NCBI GenBank assembly: GCA_026418195.1
Contig: JAOABU010000090.1
Coordinates: forward strand, 1 to 48,788
From: Spirochaetota bacterium
GTDB taxonomy: Bacteria; Spirochaetota; Spirochaetia; DTKZ01
Direction: 5' to 3'
DNA length: 48,788 bases
Part shown: piece after piece, positions 42,301 to 48,788 of the stretch
Numbering within the stretch: the first letter of the stretch is position 1
Layout of the letters: each line of letters opens with the position of its first letter
Made by a program: the position numbers and the translations under genes
Notes under the pieces: model-generated
Seen by the model: only the letters and a program-made list of their open reading frames with translations
What the model was told of the DNA's origin: nothing
Databases searched by the model: none

Positions 42301-42302
42301 GT

Positions 42303-42384
42303 TGGGGAGAGTAGGATTCGAACCTACGAAGGCTGAGCCAACAGATTTACAGTCTGCCCCCTTTGACCACTCGGGAATCTCCCC
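42303..42384 (-). tRNA. tRNA-Tyr (GTA anticodon)
   Basis: Acceptor stem GGGGAGA/TCTCCCC, an anticodon arm reading GACTGTAAATCTG, a long class II variable arm and a GTAGGTTCGAATCCTAC T-arm. Discriminator A; CCA is not encoded. It follows tRNA-Thr by about 60 bases on the same strand and is ended by the strong hairpin at 42266-42300. Confidence 0.95.
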
Positions 42385-42444
42385 AAAACCTTCTGTACAA
42401 TACAAAGTATCAAACTTTCCGTCAAGGTAGTTGGATCGTCAGAT

Positions 42445-42518
42445 AGCCATCTGTCGGATTCGAACCGACGACCCCGAGATTACAAGTCACGTGCTCTGGC
42501 CAACTGAGCTAAGATGGC
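42445..42518 (-). tRNA. tRNA-Thr (TGT anticodon)
   Basis: Acceptor stem GCCATCT/AGATGGC, D-arm AGCTCAGTTGG, anticodon arm GACTTGTAATCTC and T-arm GTCGGTTCGAATCCGAC. Discriminator T; CCA is not encoded. It marks the last core gene before the AT-rich accessory region. Confidence 0.95.
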
Positions 42519-42528
42519 ATTTCCTTAC

Positions 42529-42537
42529 AATATAACA
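42529..42537 (-). promoter_or_regulatory. Extended -10 promoter candidate for tRNA-Thr/tRNA-Tyr
   Basis: TGTTATATT (TGn plus TATATT) on the minus strand, about ten bases upstream of the mature tRNA-Thr end. No clear -35. Confidence 0.5.
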
Positions 42538-42555
42538 AGTTATATCTTACATTAT

Positions 42556-42596
42556 CTCCAGTATTCTGGATTAAATATCTCCAAAAAATACTGGAG
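42556..42596. repeat. Perfect 10-bp inverted repeat
   Basis: Arms CTCCAGTATT (42556-42565) and AATACTGGAG (42587-42596) with a 21-base A/T-rich spacer, followed on the plus strand by TTTTCT. It may be an operator, the end of a lost element, or a terminator of a plus-strand transcript. Confidence 0.6.
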
Positions 42597-43639
42597 TTTT
42601 CTGTGTGAATCTTAAATTATCAAAAGGTTTCTCCTTTGTCAACGATGCTTTGGTAACAAATCGAGTAACAAGGAAGGGGAAAAATCCTTCAGGATACCTT
42701 TCCATTTTCACAGCACTGGAATGATGGCACCATTTCCATTAGACAATCAAAGACTTAGGAAATCCAAAAAGGATCCGACGTGTCTACCCAAAAGATGAAG
42801 CTTTAGAAAAAGATACCCTTTAAATGATATAGTAAAACCTCTACAGGGGTATTGGAGTTTTAAGGAAGAACGGAAGAAAAGTACGATTCGGTTTTATTAC
42901 TTCTTCAATGGAATAAAAGGCTAAAGGGCCTATTTTATAGCATATTTGTTAGATTTAAATACTCTCCCTTAACCCTTTGGGTTCTGAAAACTTGTTAGAT
43001 TCGACCGAACAATATTTTCATTTAAGACTCATCTCGATATGGGAAGTTGAAGAGGAGTTTTTTTACCATGAATCTCTACAGAGAATGGGATAAGTGTTGC
43101 ATACTTACTCCTGATCCAGGAAACCTGACTGTGCGTCTATCTTCTTTAGCCTGTTGAGTAAACTAGTCACGAAAACAAATTGCAACAAACCGAGCCCATG
43201 GTCTACCAACTTACCTGATACCTATTTTGATGTATCCCTTTAATTCAGAGATCTTATAATAACGCCGAGGGGTTTTTACCCTTTTCCTGTTCAATTTACG
43301 GTTTAAGATTTTTGTGATTCAATGTTAACACCTAGGTGAAGGCCCGAGTGATAGCTCAGATCTTTCATTTCTTCCTGGGTAAACTTCTCGTGAATCTAAA
43401 ATTGTTTGTTGTTTACGTTATTACTGATGATTCTATCCTAGTCCGTTGCTCTGAGAACGTTGGAACGTGTGATTATCGCGCGGCAGAAGAATCTATCAGT
43501 AAGATGTACCTATCTGAGGTAACTAGGCATTGGAATAAGATCAAGGGTAGAAAAAGGTCGTAGCTTCGAGACAAGGGAAAATTAGTAAGGAAATCTGTTA
43601 CGAGGCTTTTGATGCCTGCACGTTAACCTAATATTTACG
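42597..43639. other. Long AT-rich stretch without a supportable gene
   Basis: About 1 kb. Several short open frames exist, but none shows a good ribosome-binding site with a recognisable product. One 75-codon plus-strand frame (43336-43563) and a 30-codon frame starting at 43073 (MNLYREWDKCCILTPDPGNL) read like pieces of real proteins but stop quickly. I read the stretch as decayed coding DNA. Confidence 0.5.
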
Positions 43640-43691
43640 TTCACAAAATTGTGAAAAAACTATTGACAGTACCATTAACTGTTTTAAAGTA
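43640..43691 (+). promoter_or_regulatory. Promoter with palindromic operator candidates for the first Mrr-type gene
   Basis: Palindrome TTCACAA-AA-TTGTGAA (43640-43655), then -35 TTGACA (43663-43668) and a weak -10 TAAAGT (43685-43690) at 16 bases. A second inverted repeat ACAGT/ACTGT falls inside the promoter spacer. This layout is typical of a repressed promoter. Confidence 0.55.
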
Positions 43692-43744
43692 TAAGAAAAA
43701 TGGGTTAGAACACGCAGGCAACTTTTTCAACGGGAGGCACAGAT

Positions 43745-44737
43745 ATGACAATTTGGGTTTTTAATAAACCGGCAGATGAAGCTGTTGAATATGTTTTTGA
43801 ATCATTAAAGAAAGGATATTCAAGGTTTGGTTGGAGTTACACCGAAAAGGCTGATTTAAACTTCCTTAAGAATAAACAATGGAATGAGATGGATGAAGAT
43901 GAAATTGACTGTTGGAGTAAGGCTAATTTTCTCTTACAGATAGAAAAAGATGATTGGATTGTTCATATCAATGTTCCTGAATGGGGTTATTGTACAGCAG
44001 TAAAAGTCTTGGATGGTTATTCATTTGATAACTACCCGAATGAGTTGGGTGATTTTAAGCATAGGATTAAAATTGATCCAAAATCTATTATTATTTTTAA
44101 TCGAGATGATAATAAAATACTACCTAGTATTAGAAGAAGATTAAAACTTCAAGGAAGTCATTGGAGAATATTTCAAGAAGACGATTTCTTAAAATCATTA
44201 GAGAACTTAAAAGCGTATAAAGTAAAAGTGGAAGAAAAGGAATCATCACATCTCTATGATTTTAAAAATGAATTATCTGATAAATTAAGTAATATCACTG
44301 AATTAATTCAGAAGCATCACCCTGGTAATGCATTAGAAAAATTGATAGCCAATGTATTTAGAAAAATACCCTCTGTTGAAGAGGTTATTGAAAATAATTT
44401 GGGATGGAAAAGTGATCATGGGGCAGATTTAATTGTTAAGTACAAATATGGATTACCAATTTCAAATCTTGAAAAAGAAGGAGTATTAGTCGTTCAAGTA
44501 AAATCGAATGAAGGGTTGCAGTATGATTTAAATGCGGTATATCAGCTTCAAAAAGCTATTGAAGTGCTCAAAGCAGATATGGGAATGATAGTAACTACAG
44601 CAGAAAAAACTGATGAAATTGAAAAAGAAATAGATGAAATAAGTAAAAAATTGGATAAACCTATATGTTTACTAGCTGGGAAAGATGTTGCCTCTTTTAT
44701 TTTAAAGTATGGGAATGATTTAATTTTTGATTTATGA
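43745..44737 (+). CDS. PUA/EVE-like domain plus Mrr-type PD-(D/E)xK nuclease (paralogue 1)
   Basis: A 330 aa protein. Residues about 15-150 form a compact domain (FESLKKGYSRFGWSY; DDWIVHINVPEWGYCTAVKVL; DFKHRIKIDP; RRRLKLQGSHWRIF) resembling PUA/EVE-type modified-base readers. A linker follows. The C-terminal nuclease (about 195-320) has a helix with a conserved Glu (LEKLIANVFRKIPSVEEV), then DHGADLIV and VLVVQVKSNEG, the D...QxK active site of the Mrr family. Such proteins cut modified or foreign DNA (type IV-like). GGGAGG precedes the ATG by 7 bases. AT-richer than the core and likely acquired. A paralogue lies 1.1 kb downstream. The N-terminal function is inferred. Confidence 0.8.
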   Translation: MTIWVFNKPADEAVEYVFESLKKGYSRFGWSYTEKADLNFLKNKQWNEMDEDEIDCWSKANFLLQIEKDDWIVHINVPEWGYCTAVKVLDGYSFDNYPNELGDFKHRIKIDPKSIIIFNRDDNKILPSIRRRLKLQGSHWRIFQEDDFLKSLENLKAYKVKVEEKESSHLYDFKNELSDKLSNITELIQKHHPGNALEKLIANVFRKIPSVEEVIENNLGWKSDHGADLIVKYKYGLPISNLEKEGVLVVQVKSNEGLQYDLNAVYQLQKAIEVLKADMGMIVTTAEKTDEIEKEIDEISKKLDKPICLLAGKDVASFILKYGNDLIFDL

Positions 44738-45370
44738 TTGAATGCAAACTGTGGTCTAACAATAGTGTATATACCTAATATTAGGGTTGCTACTCTTCGT
44801 GAAAAACTTCACTTACACTGGAAGTGATTAGCCACTGCCCTCCTGTAACAAATCCTTTGCAGAGGAGGGCGAAATGAGCTCATTGTCTGGACCTCTGTTC
44901 TTATAAGTGATAAAGACTTCGGGAAGTTTCAAAGAGTCGGAGAATCCCCTACCACTCTTTGCAACTCGAGCACTGCTACATATATTCATGATTTTATCCA
45001 TTCTAAGCATACCGCTTTTACCTTTCTTCTAGAATTCGTCAAGTAGTTTGAGTGTTTCTTCAAGACCACTCATTTTCCATGGGCATAGCACACGCTATTG
45101 GTATCACTTTTTACTACTGGAACCATGAGGAGGGGCAGAGACCAAAGGTATGAGAAAAATATGTCATAAATACAAGCATCTACCGAAAATACCTTTTATT
45201 TCGGTCATCGCAATTACCTTCGGAAGGTTGGGACTTTAGGCCTACTGGTAGAGAATTAGTAACTCACCCTTATAAATCTCTATCTGGTTCAACGAAGCCC
45301 CTATTTCTTAAAGGGAAAACTACATAGCCTCTATTTCTCTGTAAGTATTGCTGCGAGTTTCTGTTGGGCA
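44738..45370. other. Gene-poor spacer with a possible decayed small gene
   Basis: About 630 bases with no intact gene I can support. On the minus strand a frame from the ATG at 45073 reads MSGLEETLKLLDEF, meets TAG at 45029-45031, and continues for about 67 residues to 44828 with protein-like composition (SGRGFSDSLKLPEVFITYKN). This may be a small gene broken by one stop. There is also an 8-bp hairpin, GCCCTCCT/AGGAGGGC (44837-44870). Confidence 0.45.
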
Positions 45371-45613
45371 CCCCCCCGAAATACAACCTTCACCCTCTAC
45401 CGTTTCTTCTACTTTCTTTACAATCAATCAGTTAAATGGTAGAGGCTACGTAGAGTGTAAAGCCTTCCAAAGTTTACCTCTGCCAGGGTTTCTACCATTT
45501 TTACTTGTTCTCTCCTCTTCATTTCGCATCTATCCTCTTAGCGGGAAGGATCCCCCCTACTCTACACATGGCGGCAGGGTGCAGATGAATCGAAAAGTTG
45601 TGCCCCTTTTTAC
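45371..45613. repeat. Accessory repeat, copy 1
   Basis: About 243 bases, collinear with copy 2 at 48545-48788. It has an inverted repeat CCTCTACCGTTT/AAATGGTAGAGG (45394-45405 and 45434-45445; the one mismatch is a G-U pair in RNA). The last 79 bases are identical to copy 2. They contain a terminator-like hairpin GGGTGCA/TGTGCCC (with two wobbles) followed by CTTTTT on the plus strand. Confidence 0.85.
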
Positions 45614-45775
45614 CCAGTTACCCTGAAGGATGATCCACAGCGAATCTTAGGAGAGGGATCTCCTCTGAACGATATGTCGAACCGCTACGTTGTTGGTAAT
45701 ACCCCCTAGAAATTGTGGGACATTTTTTACATAACTTCCGTATTTTTTTTCATAAGAGATAATAGGCATGAAAAA

Positions 45776-45803
45776 TTGACAGGTTGAACAAATTGAATAT
45801 ACT
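45776..45803 (+). promoter_or_regulatory. Promoter of the second Mrr-type gene
   Basis: -35 TTGACA (45776-45781), 16-base spacer, -10 TATACT (45798-45803). The predicted start is near 45810, giving a ~50-base leader. Confidence 0.75.
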
Positions 45804-45812
45804 AGGATGACA

Positions 45813-45839
45813 TAATGTATTGAGTAGTCATTTACATTA
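45813..45839 (+). promoter_or_regulatory. Inverted repeat in the leader of the second Mrr-type gene
   Basis: Arms TAATGTA and TACATTA with a 13-base spacer, lying at and just after the predicted transcription start. An overlapping alternative pair ATGAC/GTCAT exists. It may be an operator or a leader hairpin. Confidence 0.45.
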
Positions 45840-45860
45840 CACCTCTGGGAGGAAGCTGTT

Positions 45861-46856
45861 ATGAGCAATCAAGATTATACAATTTATGCAATTAAAGCGG
45901 CGGAAGATCCCCATTCTAAACTTTTATTGTTTGAATCTTTACAAAAAGGAGAAGGTAGATTCGGGTGGAGTTACATTCCCGAAGCGGATATGCATGAGTT
46001 GCAGAAGCGAGTGAAGAATGAGGGTTGGGATAGCCTAAGTGAAGATGAACAAAATTGTTATCATGAGTTCTTGTTAGAAATTAAACAAGGGGACTACGTA
46101 ATTTACATAAACGTACCTATATGGGGGCAGTGTTCGGTCGCGAAAGTGATAGGACCCTATGAATGGAGATATGATGAGGAAGATTTTAATCATCGTTTTA
46201 AGGTAGATCCCTCTTCTGTCTTTACATTCGATAGAAACGAAGCAATGATTCATCCCTATCTGCGTGCAAGGTTAAAGTTGCGGGGTCGTTATTGGCGAAT
46301 CTACGCAAAAAAGGAGTTTCAGGAACTCTTGCAAGCTTATCAAGCAGGACTACTGAGAGGTGTCCCACGAAGTCTAGAATACAATTTAATGTTTCTTGAA
46401 AAAAATTTAGAACCTGTATTGCAAACTGTCACGGAAGGAATCTATAAAACCCATCCAAACTTCGAATTGGAAGAACTGATAGCTACGGTGTTTAAAAAAG
46501 TACCAGGTGTAAAGGAAGTGGAACGGAAAAGTGGTCGAGGGGATAAAGGGGCAGATATTATCATTAGATTCGAATCGGGTTTACCGATTTTAGGATTATT
46601 GGAACAAAAAACCTGTATAATCCAGGTGAAATCGTACACGGGAGAACAGTGGGATACTCGAGCGGTGGATGACATCAAACGAGCCTTTCAACAGTATCCA
46701 GAAGCAGAATATGGAATCATCGTTTCCACTGGTTTACCAACAAAAACATTGGAAGAAGAGATCGAGAAGCTGATAGAAGAAACGGGGAAGACGGTTAGCT
46801 TACTCATAGGAAATGACTTAGCAAAGTTTTTCTTAAAATACGGGTTAGATTTCTGA
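45861..46856 (+). CDS. PUA/EVE-like domain plus Mrr-type PD-(D/E)xK nuclease (paralogue 2)
   Basis: A 331 aa protein with the same architecture as the gene at 43745. The shared blocks are FESLQKGEGRFGWSYIPEAD, the GDYVIYINVPIWGQCSVAKVI strand region, DFNHRFKVDP and RARLKLRGRYWRIY. The nuclease domain has LEELIATVFKKVPGVKEV (conserved Glu), DKGADIII, CIIQVKSYTGEQW (QxK) and a C-terminal SLLIGNDLAKFFLKYG. The two paralogues are clearly related but strongly diverged and differ in base composition (the first is more AT-rich). They therefore probably did not arise by a recent local duplication. GGGAGG lies 8 bases before the ATG. Confidence 0.82.
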   Translation: MSNQDYTIYAIKAAEDPHSKLLLFESLQKGEGRFGWSYIPEADMHELQKRVKNEGWDSLSEDEQNCYHEFLLEIKQGDYVIYINVPIWGQCSVAKVIGPYEWRYDEEDFNHRFKVDPSSVFTFDRNEAMIHPYLRARLKLRGRYWRIYAKKEFQELLQAYQAGLLRGVPRSLEYNLMFLEKNLEPVLQTVTEGIYKTHPNFELEELIATVFKKVPGVKEVERKSGRGDKGADIIIRFESGLPILGLLEQKTCIIQVKSYTGEQWDTRAVDDIKRAFQQYPEAEYGIIVSTGLPTKTLEEEIEKLIEETGKTVSLLIGNDLAKFFLKYGLDF

Positions 46857-46949
46857 TAAAAAAGAACTTTTCCAGAGGGCTGTACCATATTTATGCTTTT
46901 ATAGGGAAACTGTTTATAGGAATCAAACAACCTTTTTGAATCAAGATAT

Positions 46950-47417
46950 TAACCGACGTTTTTCCTGCCCCGAACTTCAGTTTCAGCGTCTGAGGTGAAT
47001 CCCGCTGTTACACTATAACAAATATACCTAACCTTTATCTGCTCCTGATGGAAATATCCATGAAATGTGATAACCCATCCTTTTAAAAGGCCATCCACAA
47101 GATCCCGAACATCGGAAGGGTTCATATTGATTAATTGACTTTGACTTTCTGCCTAATCTGCTTCTTCAGCTTCTTCAAGAGTGGCACTCGGGATAGGTGA
47201 ACTTTCGTTGCGTAGAACTTCGCAACCATCATCATTCCCTTGAAAACTGAACAATTTGCTCAAGCCGTCTAACGCTTGGGCGCTGCGGATAATCGCTTTT
47301 CTCAAATGTCGTCAATTCTATTTCTTTTGAAAGTAAATAAAGGACTTTGCTTGCTGGTAACCCATATGGATATCTCATAAGAATTTTAAAAAGTGTCACC
47401 AAGGATTCGATTGGCAA
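46950..47417 (-). pseudogene. Decayed Mrr-family restriction endonuclease
   Basis: Minus-strand fragments in different frames match one family. Frame 1 (47417-47232) starts MPIESLVTLFKILMRYPYGL and resembles the Mrr-type N-terminal winged helix (PSVRRLEQIVQF). Frame 2 (from about 47191) gives PSATLEEAEEAD, a TAG at 47153-47155, then INMNPSDVRDLVDGLLKG. Frame 3 (from 47078) gives MGYHISWIFPSGADKG and stops at 47028. The order EEAEE-MNP-DLV-LLK-MGYHxSW-PxGxDxG is that of Mrr-type endonucleases as I recall it. Two frame changes, an in-frame stop and a missing middle show it is dead. The distal end is uncertain. Confidence 0.65.
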
Positions 47418-47695
47418 CTCTCAGATGAAAACGGAAAACTCTTCAGTTTACGTACCTCGTAGGGTTGAATCGTGTCAGGTCCGTTCCTTCACTACATGCC
47501 TTACGAACTTACTCTACTTCTTGTCGTAGGACTCCATGATCTTCTGATTATTAGGGTAATTTTTCTATCCATCAATTGCAATTTTGGTTCAATCTATCTT
47601 TTATCGGAATATGTTAACGTACCTAAGGATATGATCTGACGCGAGTGATAAAGCTATTTTAAACCCCTAAATTGTATACACAAGGAAAAAATAAA
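47418..47695. other. AT-rich spacer, nothing recognised
   Basis: About 280 bases upstream of the decayed Mrr-type gene. I see no intact gene, RNA gene or clear repeat in it. It may include the former promoter of the pseudogene. Confidence 0.5.
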
Positions 47696-47763
47696 AGAGC
47701 TTAACGCCCATCAAGCCGTCGCCGAGCCTCAGGGCTCCAAGCCGCACGGAGGACGCAAGCTCT
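47696..47763. other. GC-rich nested hairpin element
   Basis: A GC-rich island in AT-rich DNA. Nested pairings: AGAGCTT/AAGCTCT (47696-47702 with 47757-47763), CCGT/ACGG (47716-47719 with 47746-47749), GAGCC/GGCTC (47724-47728 with 47733-47737, TCAG loop). The left half (TTAACGCCCATCAAGCCG) resembles the left half of integron attC sites, but the matching GTT of the right half is absent. It could be an RNA or a mobile-element end. Confidence 0.6.
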
Positions 47764-47897
47764 GATTAAAAGTACTTCATAAAAATAGATTCTGTCAACG
47801 ATAAATCATGGCAGTGTAGTTTTCAAAGAAAAAAAACGTCATCAGCTCACATGTCTACAATCAACATCTAAATCCACATAAGTCGGCTGTCTGCCCC

Positions 47898-48320
47898 GTG
47901 GAGGGGTTAAAGAAACCCAAGAGGAACTCTGTTCGGCCGGTACCCGCTCCGCAGGTAGTGATCGAGGCTTTGCAGGAGTGCATGCGGACCTGTCCTTGGG
48001 AAAGCTCCTTCCTCCTCTGGAACTACCGCACTCCAGATCGTCCCGTGGGACGGGATACCCTACAGAGGGGATTCATCACCCTGCTGCACCGGATCGGAAT
48101 CTCAGAACAGGAACGAGTGGAACGGAACCTCACCTTTCATAGCTTGAGGCATACCTATGTGAGTCTTTCCCGGTCCGCAGGCATTCCCGGCTTCATTATC
48201 CAGCGGATTGTAGGGCACAAGAGCCTGGAGATGACCGAGGGGTACACCCATGCCACCCTAGTGGATTTCCAGCACGCCAAGCTTCGGATGGAAGAAGCGT
48301 TTACCCGTGCCGAAGGTTGA
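47898..48320 (+). pseudogene. C-terminal stub of a tyrosine recombinase/integrase
   Basis: The 140 codons carry the second half of the catalytic domain: NLTFHSLRHTYVSLSRSAGI (HxLRH), IIQRIVGHKSLEMTEGYTH (GH and the nucleophile Tyr). The N-terminal DNA-binding part and the first catalytic Arg are missing. The frame simply continues upstream into unrelated sequence without a start or ribosome-binding site. It is phage/XerCD-like; it does not show the extra segment of integron integrases. It reads as a remnant of the element that built this region. GC and codon use are more core-like than its surroundings. Confidence 0.8.
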
Positions 48321-48544
48321 TGGCTTCTGCAGAACATAACTTTGTTCGCAAGGGAACCAGAGAAACGAATCCTTGTCATTCCGCTTTCTCCTAGAACTTA
48401 TCAATAGTTCCGGATTCCTCCCTCAGGACCTATATACCCAACCGACAGGAATCTAATCATTGGGGTACCGGAGTCCTTTCACTCCAGTTGGGAATAGCCA
48501 AAACCCTGACTTCCATTACCTACCGCTTTGAAGGGATTTTCAAT
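48321..48544. other. Spacer between recombinase stub and repeat copy 2
   Basis: About 220 bases. Only a small GGAGT/ACTCC hairpin stands out; no gene is supported. Confidence 0.4.
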
Positions 48545-48788
48545 ACCCCCTGAAACACAGTATCTACCCTCTACCATTTCTTCTAATTTCTTTACGAACA
48601 ATCAGTTAAATGGTAGAGGTTAGGTAGAGTGTAAAGCCTTCCAAAGTCTACCTTGTCCAAGCTTTTCTACCATTTTTCCTTATTCTTACTTCTTCATTTA
48701 ACATCTAGTCTCTTAGCGGGAAGGATCCCCCCTACTCTACACATGGCGGCAGGGTGCAGATGAATCGAAAAGTTGTGCCCCTTTTTAC
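48545..48788. repeat. Accessory repeat, copy 2 (runs off the window)
   Basis: Second copy of the element at 45371. The inverted repeat CCTCTACCATTT/AAATGGTAGAGG (48568-48579 and 48608-48619) is perfect here. A second pairing GGTAGA/TCTACC with AAAGC/GCTTT follows. The last 79 bases are identical to copy 1 and the identity reaches the window edge. Confidence 0.85.

What the first reader, a model, noticed from the sequence alone, without database searches (positions are those of the whole stretch)
43640..46856. Two diverged single-gene nucleases with a base-reader-like domain, each with its own regulated promoter
Both proteins join a PUA/EVE-like N-terminal domain to an Mrr-type nuclease (Glu helix, D, QxK). 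They are on the same strand, each with its own TTGACA promoter, palindromes at or near the start site, and a GGGAGG ribosome-binding site. The strong divergence and different base composition suggest that the locus has collected related nucleases more than once, as expected for a defence hotspot. No methyltransferase is nearby, so a type IV-like, modification-dependent mode is the natural inference. The pairing of two such genes next to repeats and a recombinase stub is the best candidate here for an undescribed system.
Basis: partly seen in the sequence, partly recalled or inferred. Interest (0 to 1): 0.7.

Follow-up and report, generated by a model that had tools for sequence, protein, structure and literature searches.

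The report
Two acquired base-reader–nuclease defence genes
Two distantly related single-gene enzymes sit in a piece of foreign DNA inserted beside a tRNA gene; each joins a domain shaped like known readers of chemically modified bases to a DNA-cutting domain, so they are probably defences that cut modified phage DNA, belonging to a widespread, little described branch of an already suspected kind.

Summary
Genes 43745-44737 and 45861-46856 encode 330 and 331 aa proteins, 41% identical. Both have a C-terminal Mrr_cat nuclease whose catalytic residues are invariant in 25 homologues. The whole model best matches the modification-dependent enzymes MspJI and AspBHI. The two genes fall in different family branches (AU test against sisterhood p=2e-9) and differ in GC, so they were acquired separately. 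The insert starts at a tRNA-Thr gene where relatives have an empty site; a 9-bp direct repeat flanks it. The family is rare but scattered over at least nine phyla, often among defence genes, and its N-domain is also fused to an AAA ATPase and to ankyrin repeats. Profiles link it end to end with PADLOC candidate PDC-S02, and EVE/YTH-nuclease fusions are published: a new variant of a known kind, not a new system. The pairing recurs in none of 28 other loci. Promoter palindromes are near chance. The base recognised is unknown; the host has no 5mC methylase but two N6/N4 methylases.

The parts
42445..42518 (-). tRNA-Thr(TGT) at which the acquired segment is inserted; tRNA-Tyr at 42301-42385 is next to it
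   Evidence: ARAGORN; synteny with relatives ends at 42524
42516..42524 (.). GGCATTTCC at the left border, repeated directly at the right border on another contig (L092 2634-2642, reverse strand)
   Evidence: seen directly in the sequence
42525..48788 (.). left part of the inserted segment, cut off by the contig end inside a repeat; gene-poor
   Evidence: relatives G001 and G002 have tRNA-Thr directly followed by a methionine aminopeptidase gene; own copy of that gene is on contig C110
43640..43655 (.). inverted repeat TTCACAA-2-TTGTGAA upstream of gene 1's promoter; at chance level
43663..43690 (+). promoter-like site TTGACA-16-TAAAGT for gene 1
   Evidence: consensus match only
43745..44737 (+). 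gene 1: YTH/EVE-like domain plus Mrr nuclease, 330 aa
43745..44221 (+). gene 1 N-terminal reader-like domain
   Evidence: homologous to the modelled domain of gene 2 (alignment A5)
44312..44698 (+). gene 1 Mrr_cat nuclease domain (approximate)
   Evidence: Pfam PF04471 1.2e-7
45372..45613 (.). repeat copy 1, non-coding, hairpin-containing
45746..45839 (.). two inverted repeats flanking gene 2's promoter
   Evidence: 0.026 of shuffles have as many
45776..45803 (+). promoter-like site TTGACA-16-TATACT for gene 2
   Evidence: consensus match only
45861..46856 (+). gene 2: YTH/EVE-like domain plus Mrr nuclease, 331 aa
45861..46355 (+). gene 2 N-terminal YTH/EVE-like domain (residues 1-165)
   Evidence: AF2 pLDDT 95.7; Foldseek to YTH and EVE structures
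46461..46829 (+). gene 2 Mrr_cat nuclease; catalytic E204, D232 (GAD), Q255-x-K257
   Evidence: Pfam 1.1e-10; invariant in 25 homologues
47898..48320 (+). C-terminal remnant of a tyrosine recombinase
   Evidence: PF00589 2e-11, profile positions 62-169 of 172 only; GC 0.57
48546..48788 (.). repeat copy 2, in which the contig ends

Best explanation
Both genes encode stand-alone modification-dependent (type IV-like) restriction endonucleases. The N-terminal YTH/EVE-like PUA-superfamily domain scans DNA and flips out a modified base into a pocket. The C-terminal Mrr-type PD-(D/E)XK domain, probably as a dimer or tetramer, then cuts nearby, with no NTPase and no partner methyltransferase. They were gained separately by horizontal transfer into a tRNA-Thr insertion site and probably read different modifications or contexts. 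Shown: domain folds by prediction and fold comparison, active-site conservation, two lineages, insertion at an otherwise empty site. Inferred: binding of a modified base, nuclease activity, antiphage function, different specificities.
For: N-domain model pLDDT 95.7: the best 48 PDB matches are all YTH (m6A readers; YTHDF2 4wqn E 1.2e-3, prob 1.00; YTHDC2 bound to m6A DNA, 9szp) or EVE (Atu2648 1zce; Rpa0253 2gbs; EVE-HNH enzyme VcaM4I 6yex) structures (that Atu2648 and Rpa0253 are EVE proteins is from my own knowledge). Whole model (pLDDT 93.8) best matches MspJI (3.8e-7) and AspBHI (6.1e-7), then YTHDC1. E204, D228, G230-A231-D232, Q255, K257 invariant in 25. Profile homology to PDC-S02 and McrB-type N-domains: prob 95.9 for the N-domain, 99.1 whole, control 0.1. 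N-domain also fused to AAA_21 ATPase and ankyrin repeats. Neighbours elsewhere: pPIWI-RE, ApeA-HEPN, LmuB, SLFN-g3/GIY-YIG, IetA-like AAA with WYL, PDDEXK_4. Near-identical copies in Planctomycetota, Myxococcota and Bacillota show transfer. The host assembly has no C5-cytosine methylase.
Against: Foldseek E-values for the N-domain are only about 1e-3 with TM 0.32-0.56, so the subtype (YTH, EVE or other) is not settled. No Pfam EVE or YTH hit. No pocket was mapped. Several homologues lie among housekeeping genes (L024, L025, L029, L030). No phage or plasmid carries an intact copy; the one plasmid hit is frame-broken.
Confidence: 0.7

Rival explanations
1. RNA-directed: the YTH-like domain reads modified RNA (for example m6A in phage or host transcripts, or modified tRNA), and the nuclease part acts on nucleic acid near it, giving an abortive response.
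For: Most of the fold matches are RNA-binding YTH domains; RNA-targeting roles have been proposed for YTH-like domains in CoCoNuTs (PMC11090510).
Against: Mrr_cat with intact E-D-QxK is a DNA nuclease family in the characterised cases known to me; the whole-protein match is to DNA enzymes MspJI and AspBHI; PUA-type readers of bacterial nucleases described in PMC7897488 act on DNA.
Confidence: 0.12
2. Stress- or damage-linked nuclease of the host rather than phage restriction (for example cutting the chromosome under stress, as E. coli Mrr does under pressure).
For: In Chryseobacterium (L026) the gene lies between UmuD-like and UmuC-like genes; E. coli Mrr triggers SOS (PMC12707154).
Against: Patchy, horizontally moved distribution (3 of 393 genomes of the phylum) and defence-gene neighbours fit defence better; only one such SOS context seen.
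Confidence: 0.1
3. Decayed passengers: remnants of a degraded island without present function.
For: The inserted segment is gene-poor and holds a truncated recombinase.
Against: Both ORFs are full length, each with promoter-like and ribosome-binding sequences and every conserved residue.
Confidence: 0.06

Closest known systems
PADLOC candidate PDC-S02 and the related COG4127-type Mrr proteins (EVE/YTH-like N-domain + Mrr_cat)
   Same: Similar length, same order of domains, end-to-end profile alignment (prob 99.1, 296 columns); N-domains homologous; predicted restriction endonuclease.
   Different: Only about 16% identity; PDC-S02 models hit chiefly the nuclease half of the window's proteins; this branch has its own motifs (RFGWSY ... 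GD[WY]VVHINVPxWGxC ... RLKLxGRxWRIY). That COG4127 equals PDC-S02 is my inference.
MspJI / AspBHI family
   Same: Reader at the N-terminus, Mrr-type nuclease at the C-terminus, stand-alone gene; best whole-fold match.
   Different: Their N-domain is SRA-like; here the N-domain alone finds YTH and EVE structures, no SRA in the top 50.
EVE-HNH enzymes such as VcaM4I
   Same: PUA-superfamily reader fused to a nuclease; VcaM4I appears among the N-domain matches and flips 5mC/5hmC (PMC7897488).
   Different: HNH nuclease instead of Mrr.
YTH/EVE-McrB and other EVE/YTH-PD(D/E)XK proteins (Bell et al. 2020)
   Same: EVE/YTH-like domain as specificity module for restriction; fusions to PD(D/E)XK nucleases were listed there (PMC7641849).
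   Different: No GTPase or McrC partner; whether this exact branch was in their set could not be checked.
E. coli Mrr
   Same: Mrr_cat domain.
   Different: Winged-helix N-domain there (PMC12707154); no such match here.

Membership tests
Mrr_cat nucleases (PF04471) | Profile match above curated cut-off | tested here: met
   32.3 and 42 bits against a cut-off of 21; 25 of 25 homologues match at E <= 0.1
Mrr_cat nucleases (PF04471) | Intact E, D, QxK active site | tested here: met
   E204, D232, Q255, K257 in 25 of 25
Mrr_cat nucleases (PF04471) | Cuts DNA | not testable with these tools
   needs an assay
PUA superfamily (EVE/YTH) readers | Fold | tested here: met
   Foldseek ranks 1-48 are all YTH or EVE structures, prob up to 1.00; TM-scores moderate
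PUA superfamily (EVE/YTH) readers | Match to Pfam EVE or YTH profile | tested here: not met
   no hit at E <= 1 for P0001 and P0002; none among 25 members at 0.1
PUA superfamily (EVE/YTH) readers | Aromatic pocket for a flipped modified base | tested here: inconclusive
   conserved W36, W/Y88, Y100, F123, W145 and invariant N84, P86, G89, not mapped to a pocket
PDC-S02 (PADLOC candidate) | Co-linear homology of both domains | tested here: met
   hhalign prob 99.1 whole, 95.9 N-domain, control 0.1
PDC-S02 (PADLOC candidate) | Full-length hit to the PADLOC models | tested here: inconclusive
   best hits cover only the nuclease half; PDLC04806 spans 68-325 of P0002 but at E 0.018
MspJI family | SRA-like N-domain | tested here: not met
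   N-domain search lists YTH/EVE, no SRA in the top 50
Type IV (modification-dependent) restriction | No cognate methyltransferase in the locus | tested here: met
   none in the part of the acquired segment held here; no C5 methylase in the assembly
Type IV (modification-dependent) restriction | Cleavage depends on base modification | not testable with these tools
   needs biochemistry or phage challenge

The most novel reading that the evidence does not exclude
A distinct YTH-like reader module of bacteria, absent from Pfam, that sits in front of different effectors (Mrr nuclease, OLD/AAA_21-type ATPase, ankyrin repeats), recognises a modification not read by known enzymes, and is here stacked twice in one island to widen the range of modified phages that are cut.
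Probability: 0.25. Interest if true: 0.6.

Novelty: new variant of a known kind. Interest (0 to 1): 0.42.

Why it matters
It gives an unannotated reader domain a fold, a function class and a set of 25 aligned homologues, and makes its base specificity directly testable with one-gene constructs. If it reads an unusual base it would be a useful tool for mapping modified DNA. It also shows a tRNA-Thr site at which one bacterium gained two separate branches of one nuclease family.

Tried and rejected
Local duplication: rejected (AU p 2.3e-9). Integron cassette array: no attC-like pair stood out from the rest of the window, the genome's integron-integrase-like hits are below the cut-off, and the window's stub matched only Phage_integrase. 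RNA element in the segment: Rfam found only the two tRNAs above threshold. Other gene remnants in the gene-poor stretches: of the frames scanned, only the recombinase matched Pfam. Conserved two-gene pairing: none in 28 loci. Single-sequence searches were uninformative: the search for related loci with P0002 alone found nothing in genomes or viral contigs, and PDB sequence searches gave only chance hits. Regulation by palindromes: near chance.

Full report
What is there. The window is the whole of contig C36 of a 3.13 Mb draft genome. At its right end lie two ORFs on the + strand, 43745-44737 and 45861-46856. Their products are 330 and 331 aa and 41% identical over 316 aa. Both match Mrr_cat (PF04471) at the C-terminus above the curated cut-off. 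The N-terminal 165 residues match no Pfam or NCBIfam family.

Family. A pattern scan with an alignment of four members found 26 further loci in genomes of Planctomycetota, Myxococcota, Bacillota, Pseudomonadota, Bacteroidota, Fibrobacterota, Synergistota, Nitrospirota and Acidobacteriota. The family is rare: 3 of 393 genomes of the host's phylum have a match. No phage or viral contig carries it, and the one plasmid hit is frame-broken. In 25 aligned proteins E204, D228, G230, A231, D232, Q255 and K257 of the nuclease are invariant. In the N-domain D78, N84, P86, G89, Y100, D108, F123 and R125 are invariant, and position 88 is always W or Y.

Two lineages. In a maximum-likelihood tree the second gene lies in a 100/100-supported clade with proteins from Planctomycetota, Myxococcota, Bacillota and Pseudomonadota; the first gene lies outside it. 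A tree forced to unite the two window genes is rejected (p-AU 2.3e-9). GC is 0.30 and 0.40 for the genes against 0.47 for the rest of the contig. They were therefore acquired separately, not duplicated in place. The near-identity of three proteins from three phyla (L012, L013, L014) points to recent transfer within the family.

Insertion. Synteny with two genomes of the same genus (G001, G002) ends at window position 42524, six bases beyond the tRNA-Thr gene. There the relatives continue with a methionine aminopeptidase gene (gene named by eye from its sequence). The window genome's own copy of that gene is near the end of contig C110, with its own border at L092 position 2642. The nine bases GGCATTTCC stand in direct orientation at both borders and once in the empty sites. 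So at least 6.3 kb here and 1.7 kb on C110 are inserted between the tRNA and the aminopeptidase gene; the middle is missing from the assembly. The part held here contains the two nucleases, a truncated tyrosine recombinase (47898-48320) and two copies of a roughly 240 bp repeat found nowhere else in the assembly. A more distant relative (G004) has a different insert between the neighbouring tRNA-Tyr and tRNA-Thr, so the site is a hotspot.

Fold. AlphaFold2 with the family alignment gave pLDDT 93.8 for the whole protein and 95.7 for the N-domain alone. Foldseek against the PDB: the whole protein matches MspJI (3.8e-7) and AspBHI (6.1e-7), both modification-dependent enzymes with a reader domain followed by an Mrr-like nuclease, and then, among others, YTHDC1. 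The N-domain alone matches YTH domains (YTHDF2, YTHDF1, YTHDC1, YTHDC2, Mrb1, Mmi1, CPSF30) and EVE proteins (Atu2648, Rpa0253, VcaM4I), and nothing else until rank 49. The best E-values are about 1e-3 and TM-scores 0.32-0.56, so the superfamily is clear while the subtype is open.

Relation to known proteins. PADLOC models of candidate PDC-S02 hit 21 of 25 members, and in the window's own proteins the hit covers chiefly the nuclease half. Proteins of that type were collected from plasmids and McrB-type proteins from genomes, and their N-domains were compared with this family's by profile: probability 95.9 for the N-domain and 99.1 end to end, against 0.1 for an unrelated control. The N-domain is thus a far diverged version of the EVE/YTH-like specificity domain used in those proteins. 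A 2005 survey noted that the N-domain of COG4127 Mrr-related proteins had no recognisable fold and also occurs with other partners (PMC1189080). Bell et al. 2020 reported EVE- and YTH-like domains fused to PD(D/E)XK nucleases as predicted type IV enzymes (PMC7641849). The kind is therefore known as a prediction; this branch, its distribution and its fusions are what is added.

Modularity and context. In one Bacteroidales genome the N-domain is followed by an AAA_21/OLD-like ATPase (L035), in a Synergistales genome by ankyrin repeats (L037). Neighbours of the nuclease elsewhere include pPIWI-RE, ApeA-HEPN, a Lamassu LmuB, a SLFN-g3/GIY-YIG protein with a MazG-like gene, IetA-like AAA with WYL regulators, PDDEXK_4 and HsdR-like genes. 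Other copies stand alone among housekeeping genes. No other locus has two copies.

Mechanism. The best reading is a stand-alone modification-dependent endonuclease: the PUA-type domain flips a modified base, the Mrr domain cuts near it. Fold, active site and history are shown; base binding, cutting and antiphage effect are inferred. The host assembly has no C5-cytosine methylase but two N6/N4 methylases. This fits a cytosine modification or a phage hypermodification better than generic m6A, but it is weak evidence.

Promoters. The two best sigma-70-like sites of the region lie about 55 nt before the two starts, each followed by GGGAGG. The palindromes are at chance for gene 1 and marginal for gene 2; regulation is not shown.

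Verdict. The claim of an undescribed two-gene system is not supported: these are two independent single-gene enzymes of a known predicted kind, in a diverged and little described branch.

Noticed in passing
L035 8007-9680; L037 898-2379: The same N-terminal reader-like domain is fused to an AAA_21/OLD-like ATPase (PADLOC HEC-02A 5e-66) and to ankyrin repeats, so it is a mobile module.
   Followed up: partly
L015 5731-10058 and L016 4549-8996: In two gammaproteobacterial genomes the nuclease lies with a double-AAA ATPase (34% identical to each other, IetA-like) and a WYL-domain regulator, in different gene order: a possible three-gene module.
   Followed up: partly
L026 7506-10278: In Chryseobacterium the nuclease sits between UmuD-like and UmuC-like genes, which might put it under SOS control.
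   Followed up: no
L014 4829-8981: In Pelotomaculum the nuclease follows a Lamassu LmuB-like gene that appears split by a frameshift.
   Followed up: no
L083 2946-8024: In a relative (G004) the space between tRNA-Tyr and tRNA-Thr holds, by eye, a DUF72-like gene, a Y-family polymerase and a DnaE-like polymerase: another insert at the same hotspot.
   Followed up: no
L092 2643-4327: The other end of the insert, on contig C110, carries an FAH-like fragment and an amidohydrolase-like gene (by eye), so the insert is not only defence.
   Followed up: no
window 45372-45613 and 48546-48788: Two copies of a roughly 240 bp non-coding repeat with 25-nt hairpin arms; the contig ends inside the second copy. 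Nature unknown.
   Followed up: partly
window 47230-47420, - strand: A short frame without Pfam match looks like a remnant of a real protein; nearby TCTAACGCTTGGGC resembles one end of an integron attC site without a partner.
   Followed up: partly
G000:C126:309-758 (L077, L075): A broken tyrosine recombinase with partial match to integron integrases at a contig end.
   Followed up: no
L008 9801-10893: A frame-broken copy of the nuclease on a conjugative Bradyrhizobium plasmid between IS elements and a relaxase gene.
   Followed up: yes
L007 246-2430: A distant Mrr relative (26%) directly follows a PDDEXK_4 nuclease gene in another genome of the class.
   Followed up: no
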